A DNA stretch of 37,653 bases from Eubacterium sp. Its GTDB lineage: Bacteria; Bacillota; Clostridia; Lachnospirales; Lachnospiraceae. The stretch is taken from assembly GCA_021769425.1 (NCBI GenBank), contig JAETSX010000036.1, forward strand, positions 1-37,653. Reading direction: 5' to 3'. Under the pieces are notes generated by a model that saw only the letters and a list, made by a program, of their open reading frames with translations, did not search any database and was not told the DNA's origin. Shown here piece after piece: positions 31,904-37,653 of this stretch. Position 1 is the stretch's first letter, and each line of letters begins with the position of its first letter. The translations under genes were made by a program, and so were the position numbers.

Positions 31904-33180
31904 ATGGAAGATGTTTTCATGTTACTTACGGATAAATACGCTGACAAAATTTATGACACTCTTACCTGTTATGACCGCGTGATCATTCAAGGGTACATTC
32001 CTGGATGGAGCCACGCGGAGGGCATGACCAGTTATCTTAATGCCAACAGCATCCGTATTTTTGATTATTCCAGCTTTTCACAGCCCTTTACGGAACAAAT
32101 TCGTGAAAACGCACAACGCATTGCCGATGAAAATGGCATCGAAATCGAATTCATCCGTAAACTCCGGGCTTTCCGTAAGGATGACCGTATTCAGCAGATC
32201 ATTTCAGATACCGGTAAAACAGAGGGGCTGGTTCACATCTTTTCTGCCATGGAACAATGCAATGCTTATAAACCATGGCATGATAAAACAACCGAAAAGA
32301 CATTCCTGAAGTTTGACCAGAGCAAATGTCTTCATTATTACTTTTACTTTATTGACAAAGAACCTGGCCTGTGTTATCTGCGCTTACCCACGTGGGCTCC
32401 GCTTCGCCTGCAGTTTTATATAAACGGACACAATCTCCTTGCGCACAAGCTGCAAAAGAAAGATATCCATTACCGTATGCATGGCAATGCTTTTCTTGAA
32501 GTCTCTGATGTGGAAACAGCCCAAAAACTTTCAGAACGCATCAACCCGGAAGACTTCCATAAAGTTCTTGATGTTTTTGCAAAACGGTATTGCCCTGCAG
32601 CTGAGAATCTTGGTCTCAGCTACACATGGACGGTACAGCGGATCGAGTGCGCAACAGATATCATGTTCAAGCAGCCCAGTGAACTGGCTCCTCTTTATGA
32701 TGGGATTGTCAGGACTGCGATCTTTACTGTGAAACCGGACAACATTGCCTCTTTCCTCGGACAGCGTATTACTTACAATTGTAAGAAAGAGATCGGCGCC
32801 AACTATAACCAGCGGATTCTTGGCACAAGGATCAAACACCATATGGGTGATGTGTCAATTAAAATGTACGATAAGTTCGGCCATGTCTTACGGATAGAAA
32901 GCGCCTGCAATATTTTTTTGCAGAACATGATCCTCAGATATTAGAAGCCATCAGCCGGGGAGAATATATGACTTTTGGGATGCAGGGAAAAGATATTCGC
33001 CAGTGCCTGGGAGATATCAGCGCCTCAGCTATGTCCAGAATATTCAAGCGTTTGCGTCTTCATGGAATTATTGAGTGCGTAAAAGGAACTTATAAATACT
33101 TTCCAACAGTCTACGGCAAAGAGATCATCGCAGCCGGACTTACAATCAGAAACCTTGTGCTTATACCAACATTGGCATAG
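31904..33180 (+). pseudogene. Large protein of unknown, mobile-element-like family; internal deletion and frameshift
   Basis: The first part (31904-32944) reads MLLTDKYADKIYDTLTCYDRVIIQG... to TRIKHHMGDVSIKMYDKFGHVLRIES, then falls out of frame. In another frame the text resumes as FFAEHDPQILEAISRGEYMTFGMQGKDIRQ and continues through a C-terminal winged helix (ISASAMSRIFKRLRLHGIIECVKGTYKYFPT...LVLIPTLA) to 33180. I recall this as a roughly 500-residue family found in many copies in some genomes, without known function. The middle of about 90 residues seems deleted near 32913. Confidence 0.65.
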
Positions 33181-34244: not shown

Positions 34245-34273
34245 TATGATTTTTCATCATTATAAAAATCATA
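34245..34273 (-). terminator. AT-rich hairpin at the end of the reductase gene
   Basis: TATGATTTTT (34245-34254) and AAAAATCATA (34264-34273) form a 10-bp stem overlapping the stop codon of the carrier-reductase gene. It is AT-only and lacks a separate T-tract, so it is a weak candidate. Confidence 0.3.
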
Positions 34274-35723
34274 CATAATTTATACTTTTAACATAGTTGT
34301 AAGCTCTCTTCAAATGGATTTGTTTTACCCTTTTCCATCTAAAACCGACCTTTCTCAGCGCCTTGACTGTCATATCTTGCCTGATTGTATATTTGTTTTT
34401 CATTATGGAATCAAATATTTCACAGTTGAACAAAATCTGATCAAAGGCTTCCCTAATCACTTCGTTACTCACATTTTCTCTATAGTATCTACAGATTTCC
34501 TCTGCATCCATAACCTTGAAATTCACTGACCTATCTGTGACATTTTTGATCAATTTATCAAAACGAACCTTATGTGGGTGTATCATATGATAGGTCTGAT
34601 TGCTTCCTGATGCGTAGAGCATGAGGCGAACTATTCCTCTGGCAATTTGATCTACCATACTAATATCTACCTTATATTCATTTATATCCGGAATGAGTTT
34701 TAACATATTAAGTGCCTTTATAAAAATGTATACACTGCTATCTTCTATATTTTTCTGAAATTTACCATTTGTACTATCAAATAGGATTCCATTCAGCCGA
34801 TAAATTTCGGCGTTAATTCCCTGCTCTCTGTAACTGTACAAAAGCTGTTCTGCGTCAAATTTTGACTGCAGATAATTGTTGTCTAATTTTTGACCCGCAT
34901 CAAAATCAAATTCAGTATAAATAGTACGACCGATATCGGGTTGCTCACCAAAAATTATTCCAATAGAAGACACATGATGGATATCCTTCTTTTTTCCGTT
35001 CTTTGAAAAATTCGCTATAGACCTCACTATTTCAACATTTGTAGCGATAAAATCATTTGTTTTACCCATATGTTTTACCATGGCTGCACTATTTAATACA
35101 GCCTCAACTGATACTGCCATCTCCTTCCAGACTTGTTCAGAAAGTCCGAAATATTCCTTTGTTAGATCCCCCGCATAGCAGTGCAGTCTATTACCATTCT
35201 CATAGATATTTCCAAAATAAAAATTTTGAACTTCTGCCACTCGCTTTGCCGCGGCATCATCATCTTCTGCTCTGGCTATAACGACCACCGTACAATCAGT
35301 ATTCTCTAAAAACTCCCTTAAAATATATGCCCCTAAATATCCTGTTGCCCCCAACAGTAATACTGACTTGTATTTCTGCTCTCTGCATCTTTTCAGTGTT
35401 AATCTTCTGATATCACATTTATAATTCTTTACCTCTCTTTTATCTTGATAGACTTTTTCATGCTTCTGAAATATAAATTTAAGTCTATCCTCAGCCCATG
35501 TAGGATTCAGCTTCATTGTTGAAGCAATAGAATGAATGGTTGCAGTCTCAAAAACCTCTTTAATATCAAGTTCATATTTATTGCTAAGCTGGCTGATGAT
35601 ATCCATTGCTTGAAGAGATGTTCCTCCTAAGTCAAAGAAATCATCATCCAAACCAAATTCTACATCTGGTAAAGTCTTTTTCCATAGTTCATATAGCAGT
35701 TTTTCTTCATATGTACCTTCCAT
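34269..35723 (-). CDS. NRPS-type carrier protein-thioester reductase didomain
   Basis: 484 aa. An N-terminal peptidyl carrier domain (1-75) has the phosphopantetheine site DLGGTSLQAM (Ser36). From about 118 a short-chain-dehydrogenase-type thioester reductase follows: NAD(P) loop GATGYLG (126-132), HHVSS (Ser253/254) and the catalytic Tyr285-x3-Lys289 in NNYLQSKFD. Such domains release a carrier-bound chain by NADPH reduction to an aldehyde or alcohol. It is normally fused to a synthetase; here it is a separate protein. SD GGAGGAGCG precedes the start. AT-rich. It lies 9 bp after the thioesterase gene. Confidence 0.92.
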   Translation of the reverse strand: MEGTYEEKLLYELWKKTLPDVEFGLDDDFFDLGGTSLQAMDIISQLSNKYELDIKEVFETATIHSIASTMKLNPTWAEDRLKFIFQKHEKVYQDKREVKNYKCDIRRLTLKRCREQKYKSVLLLGATGYLGAYILREFLENTDCTVVVIARAEDDDAAAKRVAEVQNFYFGNIYENGNRLHCYAGDLTKEYFGLSEQVWKEMAVSVEAVLNSAAMVKHMGKTNDFIATNVEIVRSIANFSKNGKKKDIHHVSSIGIIFGEQPDIGRTIYTEFDFDAGQKLDNNYLQSKFDAEQLLYSYREQGINAEIYRLNGILFDSTNGKFQKNIEDSSVYIFIKALNMLKLIPDINEYKVDISMVDQIARGIVRLMLYASGSNQTYHMIHPHKVRFDKLIKNVTDRSVNFKVMDAEEICRYYRENVSNEVIREAFDQILFNCEIFDSIMKNKYTIRQDMTVKALRKVGFRWKRVKQIHLKRAYNYVKSINYV

Positions 35724-35732
35724 CGCTCCTCC

Positions 35733-36434
35733 TTACATCTCCATTCCCTTAACTTTTTTGCCAATGATTTCTGCCAATTCCCCGGAAGACTCTTCAAGAA
35801 AAAAGTGCCCTCCGTTTACTGTGTAGATCTCAAGTTTTGATAATTCGTTGTAATCGTTGACAATGGTAACTGGATCAACAAGCTGATCATTCTTTCCAAA
35901 TATCAGAAACTGTTTTCCATCAGGAACAATAGGGTTATCTAATAGATACTCCATGACAATATTATATTCTTGCTGCACTATTTCCTGCTTGTACTCAGAC
36001 AGCTGACGTAACATTCCTTTTGGCAGATTTGGGAACAAAAGCCTGATATTCTCCTCCACATAAGAGCTTATATAACTTTCAAATCCGTCAGCTGCAGATT
36101 TATTAATGATTGATGAACCCAGGAATACTGATTTCACATTAGTGCGCCCTACTTCACGGCTTTTCAGATATACTGCATAGGCGATGATTCCGCCTATGCA
36201 ATGTCCATATAAGATAACTGATCCATTATCATAATTTATCTGCCTCATTACATCAGCAACTACTTCATTCATGTCCCCATAAAGAGGCTCTTTTCTTCTT
36301 TTTCCATGTCCCTTTAATTCAATAGGTATTATTTTAGCTCTGGCGCCAAATTTGTTCTGCAGTTTTTCCTTAAGTATCATAAAACAAGAAACATCTGCAC
36401 CTGCATATGGAATCAAATATATATTGATCATCAT
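35733..36434 (-). CDS. Type II-like thioesterase with Cys nucleophile
   Basis: 233 aa, alpha/beta-hydrolase. The nucleophile elbow reads GHCIGG (77-82), so Cys79 replaces the usual Ser. Asp183 (FGKNDQLVDP) and His210 (NGGHFF) complete the triad. N-terminal IPYAGADVSCF and IELKGHGKRRKEPLYGD match external NRPS thioesterases. These usually clear misprimed carriers; a Cys nucleophile is also known in some product-forming thioesterases. AAGGTGAATT precedes tandem ATGs. It is 11 bp downstream of the synthetase remnant. Confidence 0.9.
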   Translation of the reverse strand: MMINIYLIPYAGADVSCFMILKEKLQNKFGARAKIIPIELKGHGKRRKEPLYGDMNEVVADVMRQINYDNGSVILYGHCIGGIIAYAVYLKSREVGRTNVKSVFLGSSIINKSAADGFESYISSYVEENIRLLFPNLPKGMLRQLSEYKQEIVQQEYNIVMEYLLDNPIVPDGKQFLIFGKNDQLVDPVTIVNDYNELSKLEIYTVNGGHFFLEESSGELAEIIGKKVKGMEM

Positions 36435-36445
36435 TTTAATTCACC

Positions 36446-37560
36446 TTAATATATTGTAATATTTTCTTCTTCAAGGTATGCTGCTATCTCTCTTATTGAA
36501 ACTCCCTCCATAAATTTTCTTATATCAAGTTCCTTATCTGTATTGAGATTTGAAATAAGTTGAATTGCCTTGAGTGAATCTCCTCCTACTTTGTAGAAAT
36601 CATCCGTTACACTAAACTCTTCTGTGCCAAGCACTTCTGCCCATTTTTTTAAAAGAACCCTCTCCATTTCATTCTTAGGTTTCTGGCTCTTTCCAATTCT
36701 TTCTGATGTTGCCTTTGGAAGAGGAAACAACTTTTTAGACACTTTCCCGTTGGCACTGAGAGGAAATGAATCTAGCTGAATTATTCTGCCCGGCACCATA
36801 TACTTTGCAAGGTATTTTCTTGAATAATCAATAACCGCTCTAACTTTCTCCTTTGAAAGAAATTCATTCCTATAATCCTTGTGAGCAACGAGCACACTCT
36901 GGCCATAAAGCTCATTCTCACTTCCTGCAGTAGGAAAACTCTCTACTCCATAGAATCCATTCTCTTTAAGAATACCTAGCCATTGTTCTGCAGTAAGCAG
37001 CGGTGCGTTCTGCTTAAGTCTGAAATCATTGTAATCAGAAAATCCATCAATCATTGACGTTGTTATCATCTGAAGACGATTGTTTCTGTTCTGCTCAAGG
37101 AATATAATCATTCCACCTGGCTTGAGCATATTTCTAATATACTTAAGTGTGACATTCAAATATTTTGCATCGTGAAGCATGTTGGCTGCCATGATAACAT
37201 CATATTGTTCAAGATCATAGCCCTGCTCCTGTGGTGACAGGTTTATGTTGAAAATGTCATAAATAATTTTATCAGCATATTGGGCATAGATTTTCTTTGC
37301 GGTATCAGTAAAGAATGTTGAAAGATCCGTGTACATATAAGATATATCACAGTTCTCAAGTCGTTTGAGAACGCTTGCAGTTGTACCTCCAATTCCAGCT
37401 CCAGTTTCAAGAATCTTAACATCTCTCTTGCCATCAACAAATACTGCAATAATTTCCGCCACAATAGTGTTAAAATATTCAGCAATTGGATTTGTTCTGT
37501 ACAAATTTTCTGCCACATCCCATTTTCCTTCTGGGAAAAGAAGATTAAGCCTGAATTATT
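36446..37560 (-). pseudogene. NRPS remnant: methyltransferase - adenylation C-terminal part - carrier
   Basis: An open frame from GTG at 37516 gives 356 aa. Order: SAM methyltransferase of the type inserted in adenylation domains (MAENLYRTNPIAEYFN, SAM loop LETGAGIGGTT at 36-46), adenylation motifs A9 (KYLAKYMVPGRI) and A10 (SANGKVSKK, Lys258), then a carrier with VGGDSL (Ser314). Homologous text (FRLNLLFPEGKWD) continues upstream of the GTG but meets TAA near 37560, so the substrate-binding half of the adenylation domain and any condensation domain are missing. The carrier and methyltransferase could still be expressed. Confidence 0.8.
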
Positions 37561-37653
37561 CACGGTACAACAGCATCAACCGCTGAGCCCCGGACAGTTA
37601 CTGTATTTTAATTGAATATTGTCTTTCACTTATTTGGTGAATAGAAAAAGACC
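37517..37653. other. Right-edge sequence, possible insertion-sequence end
   Basis: About 90 bp beyond the stop near 37560 shows no NRPS homology. The edge carries GGTGAATAGAAAAAGACC, which resembles an IS terminus (inverse GGTCTTTTTCTATTCACC). The element itself would lie outside the window, so this is only a suggestion. Confidence 0.35.

What the first reader, a model, noticed from the sequence alone, without database searches (positions are those of the whole stretch)
34269..37560. Orphan NRPS-reductase cluster with split carriers and no intact adenylation domain
Seen: methyltransferase-A9/A10-carrier remnant, discrete thioesterase and discrete carrier-thioester reductase, tightly spaced on one strand and AT-richer than the core genes. 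Known: reductase domains release peptide aldehydes or alcohols, and gut Clostridia NRPS pathways of this type make protease-inhibiting aldehydes and pyrazinones. Inference: this is the downstream half of such a pathway, with the reductase split off as its own carrier-bearing protein, which is uncommon. The substrate-selecting domain is missing in this window.
Basis: partly seen in the sequence, partly recalled or inferred. Interest (0 to 1): 0.75.

Follow-up and report, generated by a model that had tools for sequence, protein, structure and literature searches.

The report
Insertion-cut tail of a peptide synthetase
This is the tail end of a bacterial small-molecule assembly line, cut off by a repeated jumping DNA element at the edge of the assembled piece; its nearest relatives suggest a pathway that builds ring-containing, possibly metal-binding compounds rather than the gut protease inhibitors first proposed.

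Summary
The three genes are real: a C-terminal NRPS fragment (methyltransferase, A9/A10, carrier), a type II thioesterase and a separate carrier-reductase (PCP-R), 11 and 9 bases apart, 35.0-36.8% GC against a mean of 47.6% for 23 chosen core genes. The adenylation domain is missing because the frame runs open to 37549 and stops at the terminal repeat of an IS1380-like insertion sequence (37550-37653). That end occurs in 20 near-identical copies, all within 12 bases of a contig end, and the window ends with its contig. The other half was not found next to any of 17 opposite IS ends, and no orphan A domain was found in the assembly. The window PCP-R pairs (100/100) with a separate PCP-R in Cellulosilyticum ruminicola, in a pyochelin/equibactin-like cluster with aryl-AMP ligase, Cy-type condensation domains (DxxxxDxxS in two of three), methyltransferase, Cys-type thioesterase and ECF transporter. 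A fused relative in the same family has three Cy domains; another has none. Best reading: the 3' end of a thiazoline-type synthetase with reductive release from a separate PCP-R, truncated in this genome. New variant of a known kind; the Cy and aryl parts are inferred from relatives.

The parts
37550..37653 (-). End of a multi-copy insertion sequence (IS1380-like); its terminal inverted repeat lies at 37550-37565
   Evidence: 20 near-identical copies (93-100%, the window counted) in the own genome; 37 exact copies of the 16-base terminal repeat over both end types; a degenerate copy carries a partial IS1380 transposase match
36446..37549 (-). C-terminal fragment of an NRPS: part of a methyltransferase domain, A9/A10 motifs, carrier (PCP); 5' end lost at the IS junction
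   Evidence: frame open to 37549
36884..37549 (-). Methyltransferase domain without its N-terminal part; ExGxGxG and AAN..H motifs kept
   Evidence: CurJ, E 4.8e-39, match from residue 179 of the solved chain
36695..36856 (-). A9/A10 end of an adenylation domain that the methyltransferase interrupts (limits approximate)
36473..36658 (-). First carrier domain (GGDSL, read from the translation)
35733..36434 (-). Type II thioesterase with Cys in the nucleophile position (GHCIGG)
34269..35723 (-). Separate carrier-reductase protein (PCP-R)
35523..35696 (-). Second carrier domain (GGTSL), N-terminal in PCP-R
34275..35372 (-). Thioester reductase domain, GATGYLG and YLQSK motifs present (limits approximate)

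Best explanation
The finding is the 3' end of a thiazoline-type NRPS operon whose last large synthetase gene is cut in its methyltransferase domain by an IS1380-like insertion sequence, at which the assembly also breaks. In the intact form, inferred from relatives, a Cy-A-MT-PCP protein would condense and cyclise an amino acid such as cysteine onto a carrier-bound, probably aryl-capped chain and methylate it. The chain would then pass to the carrier of the separate PCP-R protein, which releases it with NAD(P)H as an aldehyde or alcohol, while the type II thioesterase clears wrongly loaded carriers or helps the transfer. Shown here: the IS junction, the domain order, the presence of catalytic motifs, and the kinship of PCP-R and of the methyltransferase. 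Inferred: Cy domain, aryl starter, thiazoline product, order of chain transfer. In this genome the synthetase is probably not functional.
For: The frame is open to the IS edge and the IS end occurs in 20 near-identical copies. PCP-R groups 100/100 with the separate PCP-R of G560 (Cellulosilyticum ruminicola), away from the reductases of the own C4 and C28 NRPSs. The G560 cluster has a DHB/salicylate-type AMP ligase (TIGR02275 E 5.2e-159; 529.9 bits, below its cut-off of 723.55), two condensation domains with DxxxxDxxS, a methyltransferase in the last module, PCP-R and ECF transporter parts; its last synthetase matches bacillamide BmdB best among solved chains. A fused reductase relative of the same family, G145, has three A, three condensation (each with DxxxxDxxS) and four carrier stretches before R, with BmdB as best solved match and a SagB-type dehydrogenase gene beside it. 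The nearest methyltransferase relative, G418 of the same genus (41%), lies in a protein whose condensation domain has DLAIADAGS. The window thioesterase and one of G560's two have GHC; six others with a GH[SC] match have GHS.
Against: No Cy domain was found in the own assembly, and none of its 4 free AMP-ligases matched the DHB ligase model at E 1e-90. The thiazoline type therefore rests on relatives of 41% identity at best. The wider reductase clade that holds the window (99/98) also holds G278, a PKS-NRPS with an HHxxxD condensation domain, so R kinship alone does not prove the type. The methyltransferase tree pairs the window with G418 (91/90), not with G560. Thioesterase similarity does not single out G560: two other loci score better. 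One of G560's three condensation domains lacks the motif (reads EFLIVDWTS), and non-Cy gramicidin synthetase ranks second for its last synthetase, above PchE.
Confidence: 0.6

Rival explanations
1. It is the downstream half of a gut-Clostridia peptide-aldehyde/pyrazinone pathway.
For: A reductase with its motifs present ends the pathway; the genome does hold two NRPSs that end in a reductase.
Against: Those two are single chains with HHxxxD condensation motifs; the window methyltransferase part found no match in them, only the A-end and carrier part did; their R domains lie elsewhere in the tree.
Confidence: 0.12
2. It is the end of a PKS-NRPS hybrid, where the methyltransferase works on carbon, as in yersiniabactin-type lines (recalled).
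For: The methyltransferase matches that of CurJ best among solved chains and pairs with the G418 protein (91/90), which lies downstream of frames that read like ketosynthases (judged from N-terminal sequence only). A reductase relative, G278, is a PKS-NRPS.
Against: No PKS part in the window; PCP-R kinship is closest to G560, where I recognised no PKS frame, though not every frame was scanned.
Confidence: 0.18
3. Whatever its kind, the fragment is a dead remnant: an IS-mediated deletion removed the upstream genes. This concerns the state of the locus and can hold together with the other readings.
For: None of the 17 opposite IS ends carries recognisable NRPS sequence; no orphan A domain among 8 AMP-binding matches; completeness is given as 97.44%.
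Against: TE and PCP-R are open frames with their motifs present, which suggests recent damage; the missing piece may lie in unassembled or unbinned contigs (the shortest contig whose length I saw is 3261 bases).
Confidence: 0.4

Closest known systems
Cellulosilyticum ruminicola JCM 14822 NRPS cluster (NZ_BBCG01000023; G560:C23)
   Same: Separate PCP-R (41% identity), last NRPS module with embedded methyltransferase and carrier, a type II thioesterase with GHC
   Different: Upstream part present; the GHC thioesterase lies upstream of the last synthetases; its PCP-R frame, and an A domain, are split as assembled
   Same: Reductive ending on a Cy-type line; R domain 31% identical to the window's
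   Different: Reductase fused in one 3623-aa chain; no methyltransferase family among its Pfam matches; a SagB-type dehydrogenase beside it
Equibactin locus (Streptococcus equi ICESe2) and the related putative siderophore cluster of C. difficile RT023
   Same: Same general kind: thiazoline-type NRPS, type II thioesterase, in Firmicutes (PMC3672683 and PMC6814731, passages read)
   Different: Equibactin's EqbG ends in a thioesterase domain (with its Ser changed to Ala); no separate PCP-R is mentioned in the passages read; no sequence comparison was made here
Pyochelin synthetases PchE/PchF
   Same: Methyltransferase-type domain inserted in the A domain (recalled); the last G560 synthetase matches dihydroaeruginoic acid synthetase (7EMY) at E 1.2e-159
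   Different: Release by a thioesterase domain (recalled), here a PCP-R
Single-chain reductase synthetases of the own contigs C4 and C28
   Same: Reductive release
   Different: Reductase fused in one chain, HHxxxD condensation motifs, R domains elsewhere in the tree

Membership tests
NRPS thioester reductase (R) domain | Extended SDR with GxxGxxG, YxxxK and a preceding carrier | tested here: met
   TIGR01746 E 4.8e-53, but 180.7 bits is below its cut-off of 213.35
Thiazoline NRPS (pyochelin/yersiniabactin/equibactin kind) | Methyltransferase embedded before A9/A10 of a module that ends in a carrier | tested here: met
   the feature is not unique to this kind
Thiazoline NRPS (pyochelin/yersiniabactin/equibactin kind) | Cyclization (Cy) domain with DxxxxD | tested here: inconclusive
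   Lost beyond the IS; the condensation domains found elsewhere in the own assembly have HHxxxD; present in G560, G418 and G145
Thiazoline NRPS (pyochelin/yersiniabactin/equibactin kind) | Aryl-AMP ligase and aryl carrier | tested here: inconclusive
   0 of 4 free AMP-ligases of the own genome matched the DHB ligase model at E 1e-90; present in G560; assembly incomplete
Thiazoline NRPS (pyochelin/yersiniabactin/equibactin kind) | Thiazolinyl imide reductase | not tested
   Not searched in the own genome
Gut Clostridia single-chain reductase NRPS | C, A, carrier and R fused in one protein | tested here: not met
   PCP-R is its own gene with its own start and GGAGG site
IS1380 insertion sequence | IS1380 transposase | tested here: inconclusive
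   Only a degenerate copy was read (L037): NF033539 E 6.5e-34, 117.2 bits against a cut-off of 180, partial frame
IS1380 insertion sequence | Terminal inverted repeats and target-site duplication | tested here: inconclusive
   The inverted repeat is shared by both end types; 5-base duplications are only suggested, since the targets are AT-rich and repetitive

The most novel reading that the evidence does not exclude
A small subgroup of thiazoline-type synthetases in Clostridia ends in two carriers split over two proteins (a PCP at the end of the methylating module, and PCP-R alone), with a Cys-type free thioesterase that moves or edits the chain between them, so that the product is a thiazoline/thiazolidine aldehyde or alcohol rather than an acid.
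Probability: 0.3. Interest if true: 0.5.

Novelty: new variant of a known kind. Interest (0 to 1): 0.33.

Why it matters
It corrects a plausible but misleading reading: the missing A domain is an insertion-sequence and contig-edge effect, and the genome's single-chain reductase NRPSs lie elsewhere. If the variant is real, Cy-type lines in Clostridia can end in reduction, either fused (G145) or through a separate PCP-R (this window and C. ruminicola), and would give aldehydes or alcohols instead of the acids of pyochelin and yersiniabactin (recalled). C. ruminicola is a named organism in which to look.

Tried and rejected
The other half: AMP-binding, condensation and reductase families in the own genome; 12 NRPS or related proteins against 59 own loci by tblastn at E 1e-3. 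Those loci hold all 17 opposite IS ends with about 3 to 5 kb of flank each, and 16 of the 20 near-identical same-side ends (C175, C181, C201 and C225 were not in that comparison). Only the window's own copies matched. Contig C29 has the one opposite end, among those read, whose 5-base flank would fit as a target duplication, but it encodes a protein that reads like a HAD phosphatase and no NRPS (named by eye). Three other same-side ends share that 5-base flank, so the duplication proves no pairing.

Relatives of PCP-R: none with the single protein in genome contigs; one with the two-row alignment, whose two patterns were narrow, so this is not exhaustive. Family sample: 5 of 397 genomes, the own one included, at E 1e-60; the four others are 29-32% identical inside frames of 1033 to 3624 aa. 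Phylum sample: 2 of 398, the own one included, at E 1e-50. The order sample was searched with the methyltransferase fragment only (9 of 392). The motif scan also matched A-domain stretches and one G027 protein had no DxxxxD match; I counted only places inside condensation domains. In one search one G418 thioesterase (L119:6084-6830) gave no match to the nucleophile pattern and is outside the count.

Not done: structure prediction, selection tests, a thiazolinyl reductase search in the own genome. Papers: passages of PMC3672683, PMC6814731, PMC6668435 and PMC12783407 were read; all others were seen as search listings only. Searches listed no title or abstract start about a separate PCP-R in a thiazoline pathway; several lists were cut (15 of 48, 10 of 14, 10 of 19) and the library is open-access only.

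They showed that only two of G560's three condensation domains carry DxxxxDxxS, that the reductase clade holds both a Cy-type (G145) and a non-Cy (G278) synthetase, and that all 20 same-side IS ends lie at contig ends (lengths; C175 starts at base 7). I left the odds as they were, since these pull both ways.

Full report
What is there. Three genes lie tightly packed on the minus strand at 34269-37549: a C-terminal NRPS fragment with methyltransferase, A9/A10 and carrier; a type II thioesterase; and a separate carrier-reductase, PCP-R. The gaps are 11 and 9 bases, the second one reading GGAGGAGCG just before the PCP-R start. GC is 35.0-36.8% against a mean of 47.6% in 23 core genes that I chose. 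Motifs expected for activity are present: carriers GGDSL (read) and GGTSL, reductase GATGYLG and YLQSK, methyltransferase ExGxGxG.

Why the A domain is missing. The listed start at 37516 is probably not the true start: the frame continues to 37549 and ends exactly where the terminal inverted repeat of an insertion sequence begins, at 37550. The last 104 bases of the window recur in 20 near-identical places of the own genome, the window counted, all within 12 bases of a contig end (lengths), and the window's last base is the end of its 37653-base contig. A degenerate copy carries a partial IS1380 transposase match, below that model's cut-off. By comparison with CurJ the cut lies inside the methyltransferase domain: the match starts at residue 179 of the solved chain. 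So the gene was cut by an insertion, and the assembly broke there.

Is the other half in the assembly? Eight AMP-binding matches exist: three in a 3063-aa and one in a 1435-aa NRPS frame, and four in free ligases of about 500 aa. Condensation domains occur only in those two NRPSs. All 17 opposite ends of the element were compared with 12 NRPS or related proteins, without a match. The other half is therefore deleted, unassembled or unbinned; these cannot be told apart here.

Which kind of pathway. The own C4 and C28 synthetases have HHxxxD condensation motifs and fused reductases, and their reductases lie apart from the window PCP-R in the tree. In order of transcription that cluster holds two frames that read like ABC exporters (one scanned), a thioesterase with GHS, ECF-type transporter parts, a saccharopine-dehydrogenase-like protein, a TubC-C-A-PCP protein, a thioesterase with GHC, an aryl-AMP ligase, a PCP-C-A protein, a PCP-C-A-MT-PCP protein and PCP-R. 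The condensation domains of the PCP-C-A and PCP-C-A-MT-PCP proteins carry DxxxxDxxS; that of the TubC protein reads EFLIVDWTS. The methyltransferase-bearing protein matches bacillamide BmdB best in the PDB (E 3e-213), then linear gramicidin synthetase (E 6.5e-195), then, further down, dihydroaeruginoic acid synthetase (E 1.2e-159). The best methyltransferase relative is in the same genus, G418 (41%; 4 of 29 same-genus genomes matched at E 1e-30, the own one included), in a C-A-MT-PCP protein whose condensation domain has DLAIADAGS.

The wider reductase clade. In the tree of nine reductases the window and G560 pair at 100/100, inside a group of six (99/98) with unresolved order. In that group G145 is a fused PCP-(Cy-A-PCP)x3-R chain: three condensation domains each with DxxxxDxxS, BmdB as best solved match, and a neighbouring SagB-type dehydrogenase. 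G278 in the same group is a PKS-NRPS with an HHxxxD condensation domain. So reductive endings on Cy-type lines exist in this bacterial family, but the reductase alone does not prove the type.

How it most likely works. In the intact form the last module would add, cyclise and methylate a residue on a carrier-bound chain. With no condensation domain between the two carriers, the chain would pass from the module's own carrier to that of PCP-R, or PCP-R would reduce it in trans, and the reductase would release an aldehyde or alcohol. The free thioesterase has Cys in place of the nucleophile Ser, as one of G560's two does, while six others with a match have Ser. Cys at this place is known from the ObiF thioesterase domain, whose triad resembles that of RifR (PMC6668435, passages). 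Its role here is inferred. The step order is inference; no activity was tested.

Known context. The equibactin locus has relatives in C. kluyveri and in C. difficile RT023; the RT023 gene table lists an ECF transporter, thiazolinyl imide reductase, saccharopine dehydrogenase, DHB-AMP ligase and thioesterase (PMC3672683, PMC6814731, passages). Equibactin's EqbG ends in a thioesterase domain whose Ser is changed to Ala. Discrete NRPS lines with a terminal reductase are known (omicsynin, PMC12783407, passages). The combination of a methyltransferase-bearing module, a Cys-type free thioesterase and a separate PCP-R is therefore a variant of a known kind. Its rarity is shown only in the samples searched: 1 of 29, 1 of 24, and none but the own genome above 32% identity among 397 and 398.

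Against this reading. The thiazoline type is inferred from relatives of 41% identity at best; the methyltransferase and PCP-R point to different relatives; the thioesterase does not single out G560 (28% over 107 residues, with two other loci scoring better); one reductase relative is not Cy-type; and no Cy domain or aryl ligase was found in this genome.

Noticed in passing
L119:10391-13142, L117:10138-12718: The thiazoline-type clusters of G418 and G560 carry ECF-type transporter genes with a Trep_Strep membrane protein (in G418 only that protein was scanned), which suggests uptake of the product by an ECF system.
   Followed up: partly
L107:9743-11920, L108:1434-3602: Two proteins of 725 and 722 aa whose N-terminus reads like a thiazolinyl reductase (by eye) and whose part from residue 499 matches the window methyltransferase at about 30%: a possible reductase-methyltransferase fusion.
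   Followed up: no
L123:3669-18752: G145 has a fused synthetase with three Cy-type modules and a terminal reductase, beside a fatty-acyl-AMP-ligase-like protein, a SagB-type dehydrogenase and a phosphopantetheinyl transferase: possibly a poly-thiazole aldehyde or alcohol pathway.
   Followed up: partly
31904-32944: A 346-aa frame without Pfam or NCBIfam match, 47% identical to a stretch of a Paraburkholderia plasmid, between the core genes and the NRPS genes.
   Followed up: partly
1475-2164: A transposase-type helix-turn-helix protein overlapping the end of a gene that reads like ispD (by eye), near the left edge of the contig.
   Followed up: no
L110:6971-8430 and L110:8477-16158: In C. ruminicola the PCP-R is split into two frames near its C-terminus, and two synthetase frames meet inside an A domain; real splits or sequencing errors.
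   Followed up: no
L005:1072-2607, L007:1078-2634: Two free ligases of the own genome near the amino-acid adenylation model (one just above, one just below its cut-off) and below the DltA cut-offs.
   Followed up: no
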